A stretch of DNA of 40,550 nucleotides from a virus, in IMG/VR virus record IMGVR_UViG_3300009034_000104, positions 1-40,550 of that record, one strand, 5' to 3'. Below the pieces are notes generated by a model. It searched no databases. It was not told the origin of the DNA and saw only the letters and a list, made by a program, of their open reading frames with translations. This document shows positions 1 through 40,550 of this stretch, piece after piece; the stretch's first letter is position 1; each line of letters starts with the position of its first letter. A program made the translations under genes and the position numbers.

Positions 1-95
1 AACCTGTGGGAAGCCAACCTGCGGGAAGCCGACCTGTGGAGAGCCAACCTGCGGGAAGCCAACCTGTGGGGAGCCGACCTGCGGGGAGCCAACCT
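1..95 (+). repeat. 15-bp tandem repeats coding pentapeptides
   Basis: Tandem 15-bp units of the form GCC(A/G)ACCTG(T/C)GG(G/A)(A/G)A. They encode the pentapeptide repeats and recur at 40444-40550. Positions 41-95 are identical to 40472-40526, long enough to break or collapse an assembly. Confidence 0.9.
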
Positions 96-19950: not shown

Positions 19951-20186
19951 ATCTTACTCTGTACCAAGCCCATAGCCTAGCACAAGTTTTTCGTAGCGTG
20001 CCTAAAGAACTCTATACAAGAATAATAACAGCGCAGCTTTTCGGTAAGAATCAGAAGCAGCAGGGGGAAGTTGAAGCTACTTTGTGCCGTAACGGGGATG
20101 CTTTTTGGACAAAAACAATAGATGGGGAAGTCTACGTGTATATTGGGCATATTGTGAAAGAACACATTGATGGGGTTGGTGCATGA
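19947..20186 (+). CDS. 79-residue hypothetical protein
   Basis: ATGA overlap at both ends, with the previous gene and with the glycosyltransferase gene at 20183. N-terminal helix (YQAHSLAQVFRSVPKELYTRI), then a beta-hairpin (GDAFWTKTIDGEVYVYIGH). Not recognised. Tight coupling suggests it is made together with the glycosyltransferase. Confidence 0.6.
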   Translation: MNLTLYQAHSLAQVFRSVPKELYTRIITAQLFGKNQKQQGEVEATLCRNGDAFWTKTIDGEVYVYIGHIVKEHIDGVGA

Positions 20187-22135
20187 AGCTGATCTGGCTC
20201 AGTGTGGCACCCTGGGCTCCAACTGGATACGGCATTGTCACCAGACAGGTTGTTCCGAGAATACAGGCAGAAGGCCATGAAGTAGTCGTGGCCTGCAAGC
20301 ACTTTCATACTGGAACAGTTGTCTGGAACGGCATACCAACCATTCAGGGAATGGACCTGAGTATGCTTAACAGGATGATTGATAGGGGTGAGGCTGACTA
20401 TATCATCAGCCTCTTAGATAATCACGCTATTGACGGAGTGCCCAAGAAGTGGATTTCTTACACTCCTTTTGATACAGAGAAGATACCCCTTTCTATCAGC
20501 AGAAGCCTTGAACAGCCGTTGATGATAATTGCGCTCACAAGCCATGGTCAAAAAGAGATTGAGAGAGTCGGGTATGAGTCTTGGTATGCGCCTCATGGGA
20601 TTGACACCAAGATATACTATCCTGATGAAGACAGCCGACAAAGGGGCAGAGAGGCTTTAGGTTGGCAAGATAACTTTGTCATCGGCAGTGTTGGAGTCAA
20701 TTATGCTGATGACCGCAAGAACTACGTCAACCTCCTCCGAGCATTCAAGGACTTTCACACGATGCACGAAGAGGCAAGATTATATCTGTCAGTCAATCCT
20801 CTACATACAGACAAGAACGATTCTCTCACGAGGGCGATGCAGAACCTAGAACTCGACAATCTGGTGAAGTGGGCTGAACCCGACCAGTATTTTCTGGGCA
20901 AGGTTAGCGACCAGATGATGGCTAACCGGTATAGACTCATGGATGTCTTCTGCTTGCCGACAAAGGGTGAGGGATTTGGCTTACCTCTGATTGAAGCTCA
21001 GGCTTGCGGTGTGCCGGTCATAACGACTGATGCTTCTACTGGACCCGAATTATGTCCTACTCAATATCTAATCCCAGTCAAAGATGATGAGTGGGAGTGG
21101 TTTAACAAAGAATGGCGAGCGTCTGTAAGTGCTAGTAGTATCTTTCAAGCATTGCAGAGAGCATATAATCATCCTCACCTCCGAGAAATAGGTCAGATTG
21201 GCTGTAACAATGTTCAGAGATATGACTGGGACTTACTGCATGAAGAATACTGGAAGCCAATACTCAAAGAGATTGAAGGGTTAAAGACAAAGGTTCAGAG
21301 TATTCCCCATTATAAGAAAATCTACAGCTCGTTTGATGGACGCATAACGATGTCTGATTGCGGCAAGTGGTGTGAGAATAAGTGTGGTGGCGACTTTTAC
21401 TTTATGTTGCTACCAGAGGAGAAACCTACAGACAGACCTATCAAATCAAGAAGTTATCCTGTGCAACCAGACCAGAATGGGAGATTATGGGTGATTCAAG
21501 GCTGTCCTCTCCATAGTTGGCTCTCAAGGAGATTTAAGGCTGAAGTTACACAAGTATGGACTGAACTCTGGGGTTATCCAGTAGTTAGGGAACACTTCAA
21601 CGGTGCTGTCATGGATTTTGATGGAGTAATTCCGCTAGACGATATAGAAATAGACTTCAATGCCGAATACTCTTGGGCAATGCAGAGCCAGTATCACACC
21701 AACTGTCCAGACCTATCAGAATATCTCAGTGGTAGGGTCTTGGAGGTTGGCTGTGGTGATGGTAGTAGGGTCAAGGAACTTCAGGATAAGGGAATTGATG
21801 CTATCGGGTTCGAGATAAATCCTGCTCAGAAGATGATGCTTGCTGATGCAGAAGCTATCCCATTCAAGGATTCCTCTTTTGATGCCGTGTACTCAGTGGA
21901 TGTTTTGGAACACCTCTCAGACCCACTCAGAGGCATTTCTGAGGCATTTAGAGTAAGTAAAGGTGTTGTCATATCATCCATAACGCCAGTTGAATCTGCT
22001 GTATTCTGGCAAGACCCTACGCACAAGGTTGAATGGGATAGGGAGCGGTGGAAGAGAGAAATCAATGAGTTCGGGGAGATTATTGATATTCTCGAACCCT
22101 TTACCGTGATAGCGAGGAAGAGATGCCAACATTAG
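20183..22135 (+). CDS. Glycosyltransferase-methyltransferase fusion
   Basis: 650 residues, cytoplasmic, with two enzymes in one chain. Residues ~1-370 are a GT-B glycosyltransferase of family GT4 type: APWAPTGYGIVTRQ at the N-terminus and EGFGLPLIEAQACGVPV near 262-278 (the E-x7-E donor site). Residues ~390-500 hold an unfamiliar Cys/Trp-rich linker (SDCGKWCENKCGGD). Residues ~515-650 are a class I SAM methyltransferase: VLEVGCGDGS (motif I, ~519-528), AIPFKDSSFDAVYSVDVLEHL. Probable task: add a sugar and methylate it or a neighbouring group. Being inside the structural operon it may decorate virion proteins, or host glycans. Substrate unknown. Confidence 0.85.
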   Translation: MKLIWLSVAPWAPTGYGIVTRQVVPRIQAEGHEVVVACKHFHTGTVVWNGIPTIQGMDLSMLNRMIDRGEADYIISLLDNHAIDGVPKKWISYTPFDTEKIPLSISRSLEQPLMIIALTSHGQKEIERVGYESWYAPHGIDTKIYYPDEDSRQRGREALGWQDNFVIGSVGVNYADDRKNYVNLLRAFKDFHTMHEEARLYLSVNPLHTDKNDSLTRAMQNLELDNLVKWAEPDQYFLGKVSDQMMANRYRLMDVFCLPTKGEGFGLPLIEAQACGVPVITTDASTGPELCPTQYLIPVKDDEWEWFNKEWRASVSASSIFQALQRAYNHPHLREIGQIGCNNVQRYDWDLLHEEYWKPILKEIEGLKTKVQSIPHYKKIYSSFDGRITMSDCGKWCENKCGGDFYFMLLPEEKPTDRPIKSRSYPVQPDQNGRLWVIQGCPLHSWLSRRFKAEVTQVWTELWGYPVVREHFNGAVMDFDGVIPLDDIEIDFNAEYSWAMQSQYHTNCPDLSEYLSGRVLEVGCGDGSRVKELQDKGIDAIGFEINPAQKMMLADAEAIPFKDSSFDAVYSVDVLEHLSDPLRGISEAFRVSKGVVISSITPVESAVFWQDPTHKVEWDRERWKREINEFGEIIDILEPFTVIARKRCQH

Positions 22136-22488: not shown

Positions 22489-22887
22489 ATGGCTCAGGAA
22501 CAGGTCGTGAACAATGAAGGTATCGGTGAAATAGTCCTATGGCTAACAGGGGGTACTTCTACCACACCTGAAAGCATCTCTGCAATCAAGACTGCGTGTT
22601 CGGCTGCTACGGCAAGTGGGTATGCTAATTACACCAAATGTACTGAAGCAGGGCTTACGCTGGCGACAATCGCGACTATCAGTGCATCCAGTGACTCATT
22701 CTCCAATGATACGGTTCATGTAGAGCATCCCTTTACTGCTGGGACAGATGCAACCGTCAAAGGTCACATGCTGGTCAACGATGACGATGATGCCCTGTAT
22801 TCCGTGTGCTGCTATGCCGGCGACATAACTGTTGAAAGCGGAGATACCATCACCGTTACTCACAAGATTCGTGGCAAGAATGGGTAG
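22489..22887 (+). CDS. Probable virion structural protein
   Basis: 132 residues, GAGGAGG site. Rich in Thr, Ala and Ser, with a C-terminal beta part (FTAGTDATVKGHMLVNDDDD, YAGDITVESGDTITVTHKI). Similar in style to environmental phage structural proteins lying before fibre genes. No enzymatic motif. Confidence 0.6.
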   Translation: MAQEQVVNNEGIGEIVLWLTGGTSTTPESISAIKTACSAATASGYANYTKCTEAGLTLATIATISASSDSFSNDTVHVEHPFTAGTDATVKGHMLVNDDDDALYSVCCYAGDITVESGDTITVTHKIRGKNG

Positions 22888-22893
22888 GAAATC

Positions 22894-24486
22894 ATGCCGG
22901 ATATAGTTTATCCACCTGGAAGTGACCATGCGACTCTCCTGCATAGTTTTGCCCTGAGAGAATATCTTAGGCGTGAGCACAACAGGCTAGGGCAGATTGC
23001 GAGAGATAATCCAGCCAAATACATGGCTACAGGTAAGTGGAGGCGATTCCGCAGTCAGTACGATGAGGCCATAATACCTGCCCTGAACGATGGCATTAGA
23101 TTTCGTAAGGTAATCCGAAACAAGCTGGAGCCACGTGGTTTAGATAGAGATGGAAAACTCGCTTTCTTTGACCAGTACCTTTATGGAAAGGGCGATATAA
23201 GAGCCTTATCAAATCGGCAACTGGCCAGCATGGTTCAAAGGATTTCAGCACCCTGCGTGGACTGGTTGAAGACTATTAAGCTTGATGACCTGCAACCTCT
23301 TGGCTTGCTCGACCCTTATGTGGACTGGACTGGTTGGACTGAGACAGACACAAGCGGTGTTCTGACTGTGGCTGCCAATACATTAACTACTCTTAATATG
23401 ACCCGTGGGGATGATGCAGTGGTAGTCGGTGATTATGGTGCTGGGCACTTTGTTACAGGCACAACTCATTATATTGATGCTGATGCTACAGAGGTAGGCA
23501 ATGCTACCGAGTATGTGCTTTACCGACAGTGTAACAGTCCGAATGAGAATTATGACGTTACCCCCTTTCTTTTGCATGACTTTTACACAGGGGGAAAACA
23601 TGTTTATGAGTATGACAACGGCGTAACTGACGATATTGATATAAGTGGCGCAGACACCCTAACCTTTGATGGAAGACGATATTATATCAAAATAACAAGA
23701 GACAACCCCTCAGTTGCCTCAACCTGGGATGATGCACGAGATGGTACTAGCCTGATTGACACGCTATCTATTAACCAGGATGCCACCACCTATCGCTATC
23801 TTGAGTGTGCACGGACTAGGGCATACAGCAGCAATGCCAACGAGACGAGTGGGCATGAATATGACCTTGACCTGCAGGAGGCAGCAGTAACCGACTATCC
23901 AAGGTCAGCCAGCGTAGCTGTGGGACTCGCACCTCTATCGTCAAGAGCACTGGCCCTAGCCAGAAGTTCCTCTCCAAGTATGGGTACTGACCTCAGTGTT
24001 TCGAGGATTGCTAATTTTCCTAGAACGCCATCACCTTCTCTTGGTTTAGCGACTGCCGTATCGAGGCTTGCTAATTTCCCCAGGACGGTAAGCGCAACAT
24101 TGGGATTAGCCAGCAGAGTTTCTAGGACAATCGCAGTAGCAAGGTCGAGTGCAGCAAGTTTAGGCTTGGCTAGTACTGCATCGAGGGCTTTGGTTGTTGC
24201 AAGAAGCGTAGCAACATCTTTAGGTCTGACTACCGCGGCTTCAAGAGCATTAGCGATAGCTAGGTCAGCCACAGTATCCATAGGATTAGCAACTACAGCG
24301 GTGAGAGTATATGGCAGAGTAAGGGTTGCCTCAGTGGCCTTGGGTCTTTACACCGTTGCTTCAATCTTGGAGAAGATTAAGAGATTAGTCCTGAGCATCG
24401 GAACCAATAGGACTACAGGCGATGTCGGGACAAACAGAGATGTGAGCACTACCGGCGATAACCGAATTGTAAAGCCCCGGTCATAG
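22894..24486 (+). CDS. Virion protein with lectin-like domain and eight 20-residue repeats
   Basis: 530 residues. Residues 1-125: a basic helical head (REHNRLGQIARDNPAKYMA). Residues ~135-330: a LamG/concanavalin-like beta domain (WTGWTETDTSGVLTV to YRYLECARTRAYS). Residues ~330-490: eight tandem 20-residue repeats of consensus SRxxxxxRSxxxSLGLxxxx, each 60 bp. C-terminal cap: GLYTVASILEKIKRLVLSIG then NRTTGDVGTNRDV. The repeats look like a beta-solenoid shaft or rod. The same repeat occurs in the genes at 25844 and 27437. Likely a fibre or surface protein. Confidence 0.75.
   Translation: MPDIVYPPGSDHATLLHSFALREYLRREHNRLGQIARDNPAKYMATGKWRRFRSQYDEAIIPALNDGIRFRKVIRNKLEPRGLDRDGKLAFFDQYLYGKGDIRALSNRQLASMVQRISAPCVDWLKTIKLDDLQPLGLLDPYVDWTGWTETDTSGVLTVAANTLTTLNMTRGDDAVVVGDYGAGHFVTGTTHYIDADATEVGNATEYVLYRQCNSPNENYDVTPFLLHDFYTGGKHVYEYDNGVTDDIDISGADTLTFDGRRYYIKITRDNPSVASTWDDARDGTSLIDTLSINQDATTYRYLECARTRAYSSNANETSGHEYDLDLQEAAVTDYPRSASVAVGLAPLSSRALALARSSSPSMGTDLSVSRIANFPRTPSPSLGLATAVSRLANFPRTVSATLGLASRVSRTIAVARSSAASLGLASTASRALVVARSVATSLGLTTAASRALAIARSATVSIGLATTAVRVYGRVRVASVALGLYTVASILEKIKRLVLSIGTNRTTGDVGTNRDVSTTGDNRIVKPRS
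23881..24360 (+). repeat. Eight tandem 60-bp coding repeats
   Basis: Units start at 23881 and repeat every 60 bases to 24360 without indels. DNA identity between units is modest while the protein pattern (SR, RS, S-L-G-L) is kept, so they are old and under selection. Confidence 0.8.
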
Positions 24487-24493
24487 GAACATA

Positions 24494-25639
24494 ATGGCAG
24501 ATACAAAACTCAGTGCACTAACTGAATTGGCTGCTACCCCTGCGGATGATGATGAGTTGTATATCCGTGACATCTCTGAAGCCGCAGCAGCAGAGTCAAA
24601 GCGAATTACGATAGCTAATGCGGTGATAGCTGCTGTCAAGGCCGGGGTGAAACTAAACGAACTTCAAAACCCTGACGGTACCATAGACCTCAATGGTCAA
24701 GAACTACAAAATGCGTCTATAATTTCAGGGCGAACAAGTGCTGGGTTAATTTTCAAAGGTTTGAGGGAAGACAATGACAATAACATTCTGATATATAGCG
24801 TAGGAGTAAGTCCAGGATTTAGTGATACTCTGAGACTAATCATCGGTGGCAGGGCTGCCGAGGCTACTGCTACATGGTCTAATATAATTCATAGTGGCTT
24901 AAAACTAGGAGGGTCAGTAGACCTCAATGGTCAAGCCTTTGATGCTGGGAGCGGCAGTGCTGATATTCGCACTACTGGTTCAGGAAAGGGCTTAGAAATT
25001 CGCAGCACACAAACTGGGGCTACGGGCCCCATTCTCCTTGGTTATCATGTTAACACAAGCCGTGCTGCTGATAATGTTGTTTTCACAATACAGGCTACAG
25101 GTTACGACGATGCCGATGATCCTCAAGATTATTGTCGCATTGAACTCCAAATTGAAGACCCGACAGCAGCCAGCCCAGATGGCAAAATGCGATGGAGGAA
25201 TATGTCTGCTGGAAGTTGGAACACAGGTATGACCCTCTCTGGTGCTGGTGATTTATGGATTGATAAAAGGCTATTCCAAACAACCATTGTCACCAATATA
25301 ACTACCGCTGGTGCTGCGACTTTATCAGCGGCGCAGATGGTTGGGGGGATGATTACGAGAGACCCTAATGGGGATAATAGAACGGATACAACAGACACCG
25401 CAGCCAACATTGTTGCTGCGATTGCTGATGCTATAGTTGGCACGAGCTTTGAGTTTACCATTAAAAACACGGCCGATGCTGCTGAGACGATTACAGTTGC
25501 TGGAGGCACCAATGTGACCACTTCAGGCACAATGACGATTGCGCAGAATTACACAAAGAGGTTTATGGTTGTGCTCACGAATGTCACTGGTGCTTCAGAA
25601 GCAGCTACTATTTATAGCTTGGGAACTGTAGTGCATTAA
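24494..25639 (+). CDS. Tail fibre-like protein
   Basis: 381 residues. The N-terminus MADTKLSALTELAATPADDDE is a common fibre/spike head-attachment start. LNGQELQN and VDLNGQAFDAG are beta-repeat elements seen in fibres. The C-terminal ~110 residues (TTAGAATLSAAQMVGGMITR ... SGTMTIAQNYTKRFMVVLTN) are a small beta domain often at fibre ends. No catalytic motif. Likely a receptor-binding or accessory fibre. Confidence 0.7.
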   Translation: MADTKLSALTELAATPADDDELYIRDISEAAAAESKRITIANAVIAAVKAGVKLNELQNPDGTIDLNGQELQNASIISGRTSAGLIFKGLREDNDNNILIYSVGVSPGFSDTLRLIIGGRAAEATATWSNIIHSGLKLGGSVDLNGQAFDAGSGSADIRTTGSGKGLEIRSTQTGATGPILLGYHVNTSRAADNVVFTIQATGYDDADDPQDYCRIELQIEDPTAASPDGKMRWRNMSAGSWNTGMTLSGAGDLWIDKRLFQTTIVTNITTAGAATLSAAQMVGGMITRDPNGDNRTDTTDTAANIVAAIADAIVGTSFEFTIKNTADAAETITVAGGTNVTTSGTMTIAQNYTKRFMVVLTNVTGASEAATIYSLGTVVH

Positions 25640-25647
25640 GGAATAAA

Positions 25648-25854
25648 ATGATTAAGCTGACTCAAGCTGAGTTGACGTGCTTCAATATCATCAATGCTCA
25701 TTTGCAAAGCTCACAAGCCGAAGTTCAGAGAACTCTTCTCGCTCAGAGTAGCTATATTCAGCTTCTGGAAATAAAGTATAAAGCAACTTTCAATCCAGAA
25801 ACTGGTGAGTTTGTGCCAATAACAAAAAGGAAGCCTAAAGCCAATGGCGAGTAG
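25648..25854 (+). CDS. 68-residue hypothetical protein
   Basis: One long helix (AELTCFNIINAHLQSSQAEV, QLLEIKYKA) followed by FNPETGEFVPITKRKPK. Position between a fibre and a repeat protein suggests a chaperone or small adaptor, but no family is recognised. The end overlaps the next ATG. Confidence 0.55.
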   Translation: MIKLTQAELTCFNIINAHLQSSQAEVQRTLLAQSSYIQLLEIKYKATFNPETGEFVPITKRKPKANGE

Positions 25855-26155
25855 ATTGGCATTAGAGCAGGGTACGGATATTCTGCTATTGGAAACAGGC
25901 GATGGTCTATTACTGGAGATTCGAGAGTATGTTCTGACGGTAAGCACAGCGCTTGGTCTTGCTCCATCGGCTTTAAGGGCTTTTGGCTTGACGGTTTCAC
26001 TTACATTAGGTCTAGCTCCAACAGTTTCCAGGGCAATAGTCACAGCCAGAAGCGTAAGCACAACAATAGGGCTTTATACTGTTGGTGTAGCCTCTGAGTG
26101 GATTAACAGGCTATTGAGAGCCGTAGGAGTTAATAGAGATGTGGAGAACTGGTAA
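25844..26155 (+). CDS. Small repeat protein sharing the 20-residue repeat
   Basis: 103 residues. N-terminus LLLETGDGLLLEIREY is a beta-hairpin like those at fibre ends. It then has about three repeats: VSTALGLAPSALRA, VSLTLGLAPTVSRA, ARSVSTTIGLYTV. It ends with the same cap as the gene at 22894 (GLYTV ... RLLRAVGVNRDVENW). It is therefore a short paralogue of the repeat shaft. Weak ribosome site; the stop overlaps the next ATG. Confidence 0.65.
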   Translation: MASRLALEQGTDILLLETGDGLLLEIREYVLTVSTALGLAPSALRAFGLTVSLTLGLAPTVSRAIVTARSVSTTIGLYTVGVASEWINRLLRAVGVNRDVENW

Positions 26156-26979
26156 TGGCAATTTATAGTAATACGAGAATAGTCCTCCGTCATTTATGCG
26201 CCCGACTCTGTAATGACCTGATTTTAGGGACGGTCACTTCCCCAGCATCAGGCAATTTTGTTTGTGCTGAAACTGACTGGGAGAAGGCCGATGACCATTT
26301 CAATACGTGGGTGGAGATGTTCTGCTATGCTGGCACAGGTGTCGGCACTTCGGGAAATCCTACGGACTGGGATAACACGAGTCATACTTTGACATTCCTG
26401 CCGGCAGCCACACTAACGGCAGCCGACTCAGTGGAGATGCACGAGAGATTCACTGTCAGCGAATACAATGCCTTCATAAACCTGGCAATAGATATGGTTG
26501 CGAAAGAAGGTCTGCTCCATAAGGTTGACGAAAGCGTTGACCTAGTTTCGGATACGTACCAGTACACGCTATCAACTCAATTCCTCTACGTTGACAGAAT
26601 CGAGATGGAGTCTGGCACTTCGGGTGTTTACAACAAAGACAAACCCATAGACCGGCTTTACTGGCGAGTTCTCAGGGCAGCGACAATAGAACTGGAGTTT
26701 GTTAAGGAACTCTGGTCTCCTACTGATGGAAGGACACTGAGGATTACGGGATTGGCTTCTCCATCTAAATTGGATACTGATACTGAAGCGTGTCCGATAA
26801 ATCCTGCCTATGTAGTCTATCAGGCTGCTGCTCTCTTGCATCAATCACGGATTCGGGGAACTGATATGGACTCGGAATATCACAGAGGTCAGATGACACT
26901 TTGCCAGGCAATGGCTGAGGCTGAAAGGTCCAGGTTGAGAGTAAGCATAGGTGGGGCAGTGCCAGTGGTTGAATCCTGA
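26155..26979 (+). CDS. Tail-tube A-like / head-tail connector protein
   Basis: 274 residues. The helical part YNAFINLAIDMVAKEGLLH, then a strand-rich part with YTLSTQFLYVDRIEMES and LRITGLASPSKLDTDTEACP, then helix NPAYVVYQAAALLHQSRI. This order resembles the podovirus gp11-type tail tubular/adaptor proteins that sit under the portal. By-eye similarity only. Its neighbour being a propeller-like tail protein supports it. Confidence 0.55.
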   Translation: MAIYSNTRIVLRHLCARLCNDLILGTVTSPASGNFVCAETDWEKADDHFNTWVEMFCYAGTGVGTSGNPTDWDNTSHTLTFLPAATLTAADSVEMHERFTVSEYNAFINLAIDMVAKEGLLHKVDESVDLVSDTYQYTLSTQFLYVDRIEMESGTSGVYNKDKPIDRLYWRVLRAATIELEFVKELWSPTDGRTLRITGLASPSKLDTDTEACPINPAYVVYQAAALLHQSRIRGTDMDSEYHRGQMTLCQAMAEAERSRLRVSIGGAVPVVES

Positions 26980-26996
26980 TTAATATGGAGTAGATT

Positions 26997-27437
26997 ATGG
27001 CTGAACCGCAGCGATATATCTGGCTTAACGGAGAGCGATTACCGATACTCGGGTCAGTTGGTTGGCGCAGGATTACGCCTTTCCCAAACCAATTTGCCAC
27101 CAGCAGACCAAGTATTGAAGATTACACGCCTACGAGAAAAGAAACTTGGGGTAAACTCAAGGGTGGAATGGGGATTGAGAAGTGGACTCCGAATGATAGC
27201 GATAGGTACTGGGATGCTGAGGGCGTAGATGCTTCTCTGAATGTTCAGACACTAGCTCCCCTAGTAACAACTCTCGGAACCTTCGGAGTAGAGCCAGTAA
27301 AGATTCTGAAATTCAGGGATAGAATCTGGGCTATTGGTCATAATGCGATTTCTTACTGGACTGGGAGCGCATGGACGGCAGCCAAGTCTGACTTTCCGAA
27401 TCCCACTGATGCAGCAGTTTTTTATGGGACTATGTGA
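26997..27437 (+). CDS. N-terminal part of a split tail propeller-like protein
   Basis: 146 residues, ending abruptly in AAVFYGTM. It has propeller-like strands (ILKFRDRIWAIGHNAISYWTG, SAWTAAKSDFPNPTD). The style continues in the gene at 27437 only from about nucleotide 28045 (TWLCVASQDSGSIKS, SAWTDCAKD). The segment between looks like an inserted lectin-plus-repeat module. The TGATG overlap (27435-27439) would permit coupled translation of the two parts. Confidence 0.7.
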   Translation: MAEPQRYIWLNGERLPILGSVGWRRITPFPNQFATSRPSIEDYTPTRKETWGKLKGGMGIEKWTPNDSDRYWDAEGVDASLNVQTLAPLVTTLGTFGVEPVKILKFRDRIWAIGHNAISYWTGSAWTAAKSDFPNPTDAAVFYGTM

Positions 27438-29404
27438 TGGCAACATTTGAACTTTATATTAGTGGTGATGATACTCATACTGACTTACAATCTGGTACAA
27501 GTTGGAAAGCACAGACTTTCACACCATCAATTGCTCATTCTATTACCAGTGTTAAGCTAAAGCTATTTAGAGTCGGTAGTCCAGGAACTATCACTGTCAG
27601 TATCAGGGCTACTGATGGAAGCGGTCATCCTACTGGTGATGATTTAACATCTGGTACTACCGATGGCGATACATTAACAACAAACAATGCTGGTGAATGG
27701 AGAGAGGTAACTTTAACAAGTTACACTCTTTCTGCTGGCACAAAATACGCTATTGTCATAAGGGCATTGAGTGCTGATGCCTCTAATTATTTTGCTTGCA
27801 GAGAGCACATCAATAGCCCAACCTATACTGGTGGCAACCGAGAGTATAGCACAGATAGTGGTTCTTCATGGTCAGCAACGACTGGTGCTGATATGATGTT
27901 TCGAGATAGGGGCCCTGCTGTTCCCAGTGCTTCAGTTTCTGTAGGCTTTGCTCAAACAAGTGCAAATAATAGTCGTGCCTTAGTAGCTACGAGGTCATCC
28001 TCTGCCTCAATGAGCCTTATTGCTAGTCCCCGTTTAGAACTGGATATGGTCACGTGGCTCTGTGTGGCATCTCAGGATAGTGGTTCAATCAAAAGTAAGA
28101 GTGCTCTGGGTTCTGCCTGGACTGACTGCGCTAAGGATGCTGGTGGTGGTTTGGTAGGTTCTCACTTTGCTCAATATCTCAACCGGCTGTGCGTCATTAA
28201 CTTTGAGAAATCCGGGTTTAGCTACTCATCAGTCAATGATATAACTGCTAACTGGACCGAGAAATCCGCCTTCCCGAATCTACCTCACAACTTCACTGAT
28301 TTGTTTGTAGGCAGAGATGCTGGGGATGACCCAGCTCTGTATTTCCTCACTCCTACAGGGATGTTCTATCTTGATGTCTTCGCTAACTTTGTCTTCGGGC
28401 CAACTGAACTGAGCTGGGAATACGACTCCACATCTGGCAAGAAAGGGATGTACTGGAAGGGTAGCCACTACATCGCTGTGGGGAAGGGTATCTATTGCAT
28501 AACCAAAGGTGTCGTAGATTTGGTCGGGCCTGATGTGGATGACGGTCTACCCTCAGATATACAAGGCAGTATTACTGATATGATAGGGGTGGGCTTCTGG
28601 CTGGTGATTGCTGTTGATGGCGGAACTTCCAAGAAGAGCTCCATCCTCAAGAGGTATATTACAGGGAATCACTGGCATCCAGTCCACGTAACAAGTGCAG
28701 TGAACACTCCCATTAGAGCCTTATTCTGGGATAGCGGGACTCTGTATTTTGGGGAAGGCACGAATGTCAAGAGCCTGCCGTTTCCTGCCATAACCGATAA
28801 TGTCAGAGAGATTTCGACTCATACGTATGCTGCCTCCGGGGAATTGATTGACTCCTATTTCCACAGCGAGTTTGAGGCAATGCCCAAAGTAGCTCATAAG
28901 GTCTGGGCTGTTACTCAGGATTGCGACTCTGACGACAAGATAACCATATCCTACAGGATTGATGAAGAGACTGCTTGGACGGAGTTGGGTAGCTTTGAAA
29001 CTTCACCGAGGCCAACAGCACTACCATTCCCAGCATCTGGAGATTCTATAGGTGTTTCGTTTGAGAGGATACAGTTCAAGAGGGCATTTGAAAGAGGCTC
29101 CACAACTACCAACAGCCCCAAACTCGTATCACTGATCCTGGAATACCGGGTAGTTCCACCTGTGCTATGGGGGTTTGATGTGAGGGTACTCGCCAGAACT
29201 CAGGGCGATCAGTCAGGTAAAAGTATTATAAGTGCTCTGAAGACGGCTCTTGAGACGGCAACACTCTTGTCATTCTATCCTAGTGGGGATAAGTCTGACA
29301 CGGAGTATTTTGTGGAAGTGAAGGGCATGCCTGGGAATGAGGCAGGCACGGAGTTTGGGACTGAGGGAATATATCAATTAAGTGTTGAGCAGGTAGTAGA
29401 TTGA
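27437..29404 (+). CDS. Tail protein: lectin-like domain, repeat, then propeller C-terminal part
   Basis: 655 residues from the ATG at 27437 (a GTG at 27434 is one codon earlier). Residues ~1-155: a beta domain of the type with SVKLKLFRVGSPGTITVSIR and LSAGTKYAIVIRA ... GSSWSATTGADMMF, probably carbohydrate binding. Residues ~158-200: about 1.5 copies of the 20-residue repeat (SRALVATRSSSASMSL). From ~205: propeller-like tail protein continuing the gene at 26997, ending with a tail-type domain. The role as tail-tube B-like nozzle protein is inferred. Confidence 0.7.
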   Translation: MATFELYISGDDTHTDLQSGTSWKAQTFTPSIAHSITSVKLKLFRVGSPGTITVSIRATDGSGHPTGDDLTSGTTDGDTLTTNNAGEWREVTLTSYTLSAGTKYAIVIRALSADASNYFACREHINSPTYTGGNREYSTDSGSSWSATTGADMMFRDRGPAVPSASVSVGFAQTSANNSRALVATRSSSASMSLIASPRLELDMVTWLCVASQDSGSIKSKSALGSAWTDCAKDAGGGLVGSHFAQYLNRLCVINFEKSGFSYSSVNDITANWTEKSAFPNLPHNFTDLFVGRDAGDDPALYFLTPTGMFYLDVFANFVFGPTELSWEYDSTSGKKGMYWKGSHYIAVGKGIYCITKGVVDLVGPDVDDGLPSDIQGSITDMIGVGFWLVIAVDGGTSKKSSILKRYITGNHWHPVHVTSAVNTPIRALFWDSGTLYFGEGTNVKSLPFPAITDNVREISTHTYAASGELIDSYFHSEFEAMPKVAHKVWAVTQDCDSDDKITISYRIDEETAWTELGSFETSPRPTALPFPASGDSIGVSFERIQFKRAFERGSTTTNSPKLVSLILEYRVVPPVLWGFDVRVLARTQGDQSGKSIISALKTALETATLLSFYPSGDKSDTEYFVEVKGMPGNEAGTEFGTEGIYQLSVEQVVD

Positions 29405-29610: not shown

Positions 29611-30021
29611 ATGCACTTAATCATTGATGGCGTATCGAGCAATATCCAGCTAATGACGACTCAAGCTCTCATTTATCGTTGGCTCTACGATGCCGTCAAG
29701 ATTGCTGATATGAGCCCAGAGGGCGAACCTGTAATAAAGTCATTCGCCTGGCCTGGGTCAACCGATAGTGATGCAATCTCAGCGTATCAGTTCATAAAGG
29801 AATCGGGGATAGCCGTTCACTGCTACCCGGAGCGTCAGTTCGTTTTTATCGATGTATTCAGTTGTAAAGAGTTTGACCTTGAGAGGATGATTGACCACAT
29901 AATCAAGCAGTTCAAGATTAAGCAGCCTAGAGTGGTAATACTTCGGCGTGGTGTTGATATGAACAGTGGGAAGATAATACCAGCGACATTCGAGTCGCAA
30001 GAGGACCTGAATGGCATATGA
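29611..30021 (+). CDS. speD: S-adenosylmethionine decarboxylase-family pyruvoyl enzyme
   Basis: 136 residues, the length of the prokaryotic class 1b proenzyme. ESGIAVHCYPE (64-74) aligns with the family's ESHxSIHTWPE: Glu64-Ser65 is the self-cleavage site giving the pyruvoyl group, His70 the processing residue. Cys85 in DVFSC is the catalytic Cys. The Ser-5-His-15-Cys spacing is exactly that of the family. The N-terminus HLIIDG also matches. Differences: His after the Ser is Gly, and TW is CY, which could change substrate; some homologues decarboxylate arginine or ornithine. Product would feed polyamine synthesis. It sits between two membrane proteins at the end of the late operon, and no other polyamine gene is present. 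Confidence 0.8.
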   Translation: MHLIIDGVSSNIQLMTTQALIYRWLYDAVKIADMSPEGEPVIKSFAWPGSTDSDAISAYQFIKESGIAVHCYPERQFVFIDVFSCKEFDLERMIDHIIKQFKIKQPRVVILRRGVDMNSGKIIPATFESQEDLNGI

Positions 30022-40368: not shown

Positions 40369-40550
40369 ATGAATAAACAAAAATTGGCTAAAACATTGCG
40401 ACTACACAAGCACTGGTTGGAAGATAAAATTGGTGGTGAGAGAGCCAACCTGTGGGGAGCCGACCTGCGGGGAGCCAACCTGCGGGAAGCCAACCTGTGG
40501 GGAGCCGACCTGCGGGGAGCCAACCTGCGGGAAGCCAAGCTGTGGGGAGC
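40369..40550 (+). CDS. Pentapeptide-repeat protein (N-terminal part)
   Basis: ATG at 40369 with GAAAGGAG upstream. [20 protein letters not shown] is a short helix with the HKHWL pattern usual before phage pentapeptide repeats. [20 protein letters not shown] begins the repeats, running to the window end with W and R alternating. The gene continues at position 1. The join lacks exactly one base for an open frame. Confidence 0.8.

What the first reader, a model, noticed from the sequence alone, without database searches (positions are those of the whole stretch)
23881..28045. A 20-residue repeat family shared by three virion genes
SRxxxxxRSxxxSLGLxxxx occurs eight times at 23881-24360 with exact 60-base spacing, about three times at 25920-26090 and about 1.5 times at 27920-28040. 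I know no named family with this pattern. Alternating small and hydrophobic residues with a fixed period of 20 fit a beta-solenoid or trimeric shaft. Copies in separate proteins may let the proteins co-assemble into one rod, or act as exchange points for lectin modules.
Basis: partly seen in the sequence, partly recalled or inferred. Interest (0 to 1): 0.7.

Follow-up and report, generated by a model that had tools for sequence, protein, structure and literature searches.

The report
Viral tail adhesin stalk repeats
A short 20-residue building block recurs in three neighbouring virion genes of this bacterial virus and in about 40 other uncultured virus sequences, where it probably forms a stiff stalk that carries swappable binding domains on the virus tail; it belongs to no named family that I could find.

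Summary
Gene 22894-24486 has eight in-frame 20-residue units at 23881-24360 (lag-20 self-identity 0.45 against 0.12 in shuffles). Gene 25844-26155 has three. Gene 27434-29404 has about 1.5; that weak copy is supported by its position in two syntenic relatives.

A 60-nt-period DNA pattern found genuine arrays in about 42 IMG/VR loci, in three sequence flavours (profile-profile E 5e-16). A stricter form found none in genomes of 84,980 prokaryote species. Pfam, PHROGs, NCBIfam and PDB sequences contain no matching repeat family.

The arrays lie in tail genes and follow or enclose beta-sandwich or propeller modules. These modules are exchanged: the window's choice-of-anchor-R domain is unrelated to the domain at the same site in L161 (backbone 63-66% identical), yet about 77% identical in DNA to domains between repeat blocks of two otherwise different viruses.

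With a deep in-register alignment AlphaFold2 gives a beta-solenoid (pLDDT 74); a shallow alignment gave a poor antiparallel sheet.

Best reading: a stalk repeat of tail adhesins whose array edges are sites of module exchange. Co-assembly of the three proteins into one rod has no support. Fold and oligomeric state remain inferred.

The parts
22489..22887 (+). 132-aa gene that precedes the array gene here; a gene of similar size (about 128-134 aa) precedes it in most other array-bearing viruses
   Evidence: 63% identical in L161 and 45% in L162; same position and size elsewhere
22894..24486 (+). Gene 1, long adhesin, 530 aa: N-terminal region about 1-140, module about 141-325, eight repeats, C-terminal cap
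   Evidence: no Pfam hit and only a marginal PHROG hit
23881..24360 (+). Array of eight 20-residue units
24361..24483 (+). C-terminal cap with short GTNRxxx.. repeats, shared with L161 (GTNRSISEVGTNREISETGDNRDVETW), L162 and gene 3 (VGVNRDVENW)
24494..25639 (+). Gene 2, probable fibre protein, no repeats; C-terminal third matches phrog_673
   Evidence: E 1.4e-36; start of the gene about 80% nt identical to L104
25844..26155 (+). Gene 3, 103 aa: LLLETGDGLLLE leader, three repeats (about 25925-26086), cap VGVNRDVENW
   Evidence: leader about 78% nt identical to L104, which also continues into an array
26155..26979 (+). SU10-type adaptor, PF24175
   Evidence: 29.3 bits, cut-off 27; 66-73% identical in L161 and L162
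26997..27437 (+). Propeller-type (presumed nozzle) protein, part A, ending in a stop-start overlap
   Evidence: 60% identical in L161 and L162; overlap TGATG, TAATG, TAGTG in the three viruses
27434..29404 (+). Propeller-type (presumed nozzle) protein, part B, starting with an inserted module plus 1.5 repeats
27467..27889 (+). Choice-of-anchor R domain, the exchanged module
   Evidence: NF041539, 44.9 bits, cut-off 30; 53-55% identical to domains in L180 and L183
27920..28036 (+). About 1.5 repeat units between the module and the conserved propeller
   Evidence: homologous copy in L161 detected

Best explanation
The 20-residue unit is a beta-strand-rich stalk repeat, most likely one coil of a beta-solenoid, found in tail-attached adhesins of uncultured tailed phages. 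A block of repeats presents beta-sandwich or beta-propeller binding modules, which sit at its N-terminal side or between repeat blocks, while a conserved cap or a tail protein (nozzle or hub) anchors the chain. In this virus one gene is a long adhesin (modules + 8 repeats + cap), one is a short version (leader + 3 repeats + cap), and one is the presumed nozzle propeller into which a module plus 1.5 repeats has been inserted. That insertion splits the nozzle into two probably translationally coupled polypeptides. Because the repeats stay alike while the modules differ, the array edge is where modules are exchanged by recombination, which would change receptor binding. Shown here: the repeats, their spread among viruses, their place in tail genes, the module swaps and the conserved split. 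Inferred: the fold, the surface display, the anchoring and the receptor-binding role.
For: About 42 viral loci with genuine arrays. Array genes lie next to adaptor or tail genes; in L172 the array is fused to what reads as the start of a prophage-tail endopeptidase. Modules with known binding-type folds: Laminin_G_3, BNR, F5/8 type C, DUF2341, choice-of-anchor R. Module exchange: unrelated N-terminal domains in L161 beside a 60-66% identical backbone; the window's anchor-R domain is about 77% identical in DNA to domains in L180 and L183, against about 67% for the adaptor gene in the closer relatives. Fold: AF2 pLDDT 74, last four units 82-90, beta-solenoid neighbours at Z up to 11.3. The split of the propeller is conserved in three viruses.
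Against: The shallow-alignment AF2 model was an antiparallel sheet at pLDDT 52. The deep alignment contains shifted windows of the same arrays and may favour a solenoid. Foldseek gives no significant match. No binding, display or structural experiment exists; the nozzle identity is inferred from gene order and a propeller-like sequence, with no PDB sequence match.
Confidence: 0.6

Rival explanations
1. The array is a trimeric beta shaft (like the triple beta-spiral of adenovirus fibre or other intertwined phage fibre shafts): each unit gives strands that pair between three chains, not a self-contained solenoid coil.
For: Most phage fibres are trimers (general knowledge; SU10 long and short fibres are trimers, PMC9509320). 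The first monomer model was poor, as expected if other chains are needed. Alternating hydrophobic positions fit either.
Against: The deep-alignment monomer model reaches pLDDT 82-90 in its last four units and resembles solenoids. The 20-residue period is longer than the roughly 15 residues of the triple beta-spiral (general knowledge).
Confidence: 0.25
2. The repeats are a flexible linker of low structural order that only spaces the modules.
For: High Ser/Ala/Thr content; copy number varies from 1.5 to several tens of units.
Against: Period of 20 in 417 of 475 spacings, kept at low DNA identity between adjacent units (33-62%) and in three divergent flavours; fixed Gly and Arg positions; AF2 beta structure.
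Confidence: 0.06
3. Copies in the three proteins let them co-assemble into one rod or sheet through their repeats.
For: Several viruses have arrays in two or more genes (window, L161, L173, L174, L175), and the window's nozzle unit is closest to gene 1 of the same virus.
Against: The L161 nozzle unit is closer to a window unit than to its own array; the nozzle copy has only 1.5 units; many records show an array in one gene only, though most are fragments.
Confidence: 0.07

Closest known systems
SU10 (Kuravirus) nozzle gp17 with fibre dock loop and inserted Ig-like nozzle domains (PMC9509320)
   Same: A propeller-type tail protein encoded near an adaptor of the SU10 family, with extra domains inserted into the propeller
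   Different: Here the insert is a swapped beta-sandwich plus repeats and the protein is split into two ORFs; no sequence match to any PDB chain
BACON-domain tandem repeats in tail proteins of crAss-like phages (PMC6949934)
   Same: Tandem repeats in tail-associated proteins, suggested role in host binding, horizontal transfer of domains
   Different: BACON units are whole domains of a named family; these units have 20 residues and no named family
Domain mosaicism of phage receptor-binding proteins (PMC10684548)
   Same: Domain shuffling between otherwise unrelated receptor-binding proteins
   Different: Here one repeat family marks the borders of the exchanged modules
Beta-solenoid adhesins and tailspikes (FHA 1rwr; phage CBA120 TSP2 6w4q)
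   Same: Predicted coil geometry: VIA-align Z 10.8 (rmsd 3.0, 150 aligned) and Z 9.4 (rmsd 3.3, 160 aligned)
   Different: Sequence identity 6-8%; no profile hit; at most a shared fold class

Membership tests
Named repeat or domain family (Pfam-A, PHROGs v4, NCBIfam) | A model that matches the array stretch | tested here: not met
   No model covers the arrays convincingly in the window or in relatives
Repeat with a solved structure | Sequence-profile match to a PDB chain | tested here: not met
   No hit at E <= 1
Beta-solenoid proteins | Stacked coils with parallel in-register strands | tested here: inconclusive
   Deep-alignment model resembles solenoids (Z up to 11.3), shallow one does not; Foldseek not significant
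Pentapeptide-repeat proteins | A(D/N)LXX units with a five-residue period | tested here: not met
   Lag-5 self-identity 0.07 against 0.45 at lag 20
Triple beta-spiral fibre shafts | Trimer with intertwined strands, about 15 residues per unit | not testable with these tools
Choice-of-anchor R domain, NF041539 (the inserted module) | Score above the curated cut-off of 30 bits | tested here: met
   44.9 bits in the window; L180 33.7; L162 27.9, below cut-off
SU10 adaptor, PF24175 (neighbouring gene) | Score above the gathering cut-off of 27 bits | tested here: met
   29.3 bits
Podovirus nozzle (T7 gp12, SU10 gp17) | Beta-propeller fold, hexamer attached below the adaptor | not tested

The most novel reading that the evidence does not exclude
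The repeat is an undescribed, virus-restricted stalk superfamily used by many uncultured phages with different tail types as a common socket for binding modules: a domain flanked by repeat blocks can be recombined into adhesins, nozzles or tail hubs, and insertion into nozzle or hub genes has repeatedly produced split, translationally coupled tail proteins.
Probability: 0.35. Interest if true: 0.7.

Novelty: new variant of a known kind. Interest (0 to 1): 0.5.

Why it matters
Receptor-binding proteins of uncultured phages are hard to recognise because their binding domains change quickly. A conserved, profile-detectable stalk repeat gives a handle to find them, to delimit the exchanged modules, and to study how one kind of module moves between very different tails. 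The split nozzle is also a clear structural question for cryo-EM.

Tried and rejected
Tblastn of gene 1 and of a flavour-c array in the phage collection: no match; a flavour-b array found one human-faecal phage scaffold without annotation (MT835599, E 6e-5). Back-translated protein searches: gene 1 found only a near-identical contig that ends inside the array (L001), gene 3 nothing. More than half of the pattern hits were rejected as frame artefacts of pentapeptide-like, collagen-like or other low-complexity DNA. Concerted evolution between arrays of one virus: inconclusive. Spacing parity as a strand signature: deviations from 20 are mostly 18, 21 and 22, which does not decide between topologies. 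Foldseek against viral models and PDB: no significant match. A weak PDB match of L016 to an IgA1 protease (E 0.0018) was not reproduced by the profile and is treated as compositional. Searches for distant relatives of the nozzle and adaptor returned only the two viruses already found, so no unsplit nozzle was available for comparison. Literature searches found no paper on this repeat in the held library.

Full report
OBSERVATION. The window is a linear IMG/VR virus record with a TerL, an LPD38 polyvalent protein, a major head protein and an SU10-type adaptor. Gene 22894-24486 holds eight in-frame 20-residue units at 23881-24360. Lag-20 self-identity is 0.45, against a shuffle mean of 0.115 and a maximum of 0.197. 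A profile built without window sequences scores the array 114 bits, shuffles at most 8. Gene 25844-26155 holds three units (E 7e-6). Gene 27434-29404 holds about 1.5; that copy is below the profile threshold and is accepted because it resembles gene 1 and because the same site in L161 carries detected units. Adjacent units of gene 1 are only 33-62% identical in DNA, so the period has probably been kept by selection on the protein rather than by recent duplication (inference).

FAMILY. A DNA pattern with three consecutive units in 60-nt register found 112 stretches in IMG/VR. About 42 loci are genuine long open arrays; the rest are frame artefacts or were not resolved by my filter. A few of the 42 are overlapping or near-identical contigs. 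Three flavours occur: SASVSVGVVATASRAIAITR (a, like the window), TALLGLKTTASRVVALTR (b) and ADSLGLTDSxxRxxxxxRxx (c). All keep the Gly and the two Arg positions, with hydrophobic residues around the Gly (the Gly was the anchor used to cut units). The a/b profile hits 39 of 40 array-bearing records at E <= 1e-5, flavour c included (these records had been chosen by the pattern or as relatives). Profile-profile comparison of a/b with c gives E 4.7e-16, with few effective sequences. A stricter form of the pattern, met by 20 of the 42 viral loci, gave 44 hits in 84,980 prokaryote genomes, none of them genuine. No Pfam, PHROG, NCBIfam or PDB sequence model covers the repeat.

CONTEXT. In most array-bearing viruses the array gene follows a small gene of about 128-134 aa (window 22489-22887); an SU10-adaptor-type gene lies nearby, upstream in several of the other viruses and just downstream of the array genes in the window, L161 and L162. 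In L172 the array polypeptide ends in about 80 residues that read as the beginning of a prophage-tail endopeptidase, whose remainder (PF06605, E 1e-32) is the next ORF (the continuity is my reading of the sequences), and L098 shows the same ending. The N-terminal and embedded domains of array proteins include Laminin_G_3, F5/8 type C, BNR propellers, DUF2341 and choice-of-anchor R, the usual equipment of carbohydrate-binding surface and tail proteins (general knowledge).

SPLIT PROTEIN. In the window, L161 and L162 the gene after the adaptor is divided into A (146-151 aa) and B (649-656 aa) with a stop-start overlap (TGATG, TAATG, TAGTG) in all three. B begins with a module and about 1.5 repeats and then continues with sequence 65-66% identical to the window in both relatives. 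The order adaptor-propeller suggests a podovirus nozzle. In SU10 the nozzle propeller also carries inserted domains and a fibre dock (PMC9509320). The propeller fold was not tested here.

MODULE EXCHANGE. Adaptor and propeller parts are 52-73% identical in protein among the three viruses, but the N-terminal domain of B in L161 is unrelated to that of the window, and the N-terminal domains of the adhesin are unrelated in all three; similarity begins at the array. The window's B domain is a choice-of-anchor R domain (44.9 bits), 53-55% identical to domains embedded between flavour-b repeat blocks in L180 and L183. In DNA it is about 77% identical to these over 128-144 bp, while the adaptor genes of the closer relatives are about 67% identical. 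L180 and L183 share little else with the window: the repeats and, for L183, a weak 21% match of the major head protein. This is best explained by horizontal exchange of modules with borders at the repeats. Whether recombination uses the repeats themselves or is only tolerated there is not shown.

FOLD. With 20 rows AlphaFold2 gave an antiparallel-looking all-beta model at pLDDT 52. With 117 in-register rows it gave a beta model at pLDDT 74, pTM 0.70, with the last four units at 79-90 by 10-residue block. VIA-align's best matches are beta-solenoids (Z 11.3 adhesin 3pet, 11.0 pectate lyase 1ee6, 10.8 FHA 1rwr, 9.4 phage tailspike 6w4q), but Foldseek is not significant. The second alignment includes shifted windows of the same arrays, which may push the result to a solenoid. 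I therefore hold 'beta' as likely, 'solenoid' as more likely than not, and 'trimer' as untested.

VERDICT. I judge it an undescribed repeat family within a known kind of system (modular phage tail adhesins).

Noticed in passing
window 1-95 and 40442-40550: Both ends carry the same 15/45-nt repeats and read as two halves of one pentapeptide-repeat gene; the record has 40551 bases, one more than the window. The genome may be circular or circularly permuted and nearly complete, broken inside this gene.
   Followed up: partly
window 26997-29404; L161 4388-6804; L162 4955-7347: A propeller-like tail protein is split into two ORFs with a stop-start overlap in three viruses; L172/L098 suggest a similar split of a tail-hub protein behind an array.
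   Followed up: partly
window 25844-25925; L047; L096: A leader of the type LLLETGDGLLLE / LLEDGSGNYILEDSSG precedes or interrupts arrays in several viruses (about 78% nt identical between window and L104), perhaps a separate small hairpin module.
   Followed up: no
C-termini of array proteins, e.g. L055, L104, L046, L019: Many array proteins end in short 9-11-residue repeats (TSQYRKIKTITSQYRKIRT, LTTRLYDRSLTTRLYDR, TYHDVKVFTQTYHDV), different in each group; role unknown.
   Followed up: no
window 24494-25639: The C-terminal third matches phrog_673, annotated 'head scaffolding protein', although gene position and N-terminus look like a fibre gene; the annotation may be wrong.
   Followed up: no
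window 29611-30021 and 20183-22135: A phage S-adenosylmethionine decarboxylase (PF02675, E 2e-18) and a fused glycosyltransferase-methyltransferase beside the tail genes.
   Followed up: no
window 23895-24281, minus strand: A 128-aa antisense ORF over the array is kept open by the 60-nt periodicity; most likely an artefact of the array.
   Followed up: no
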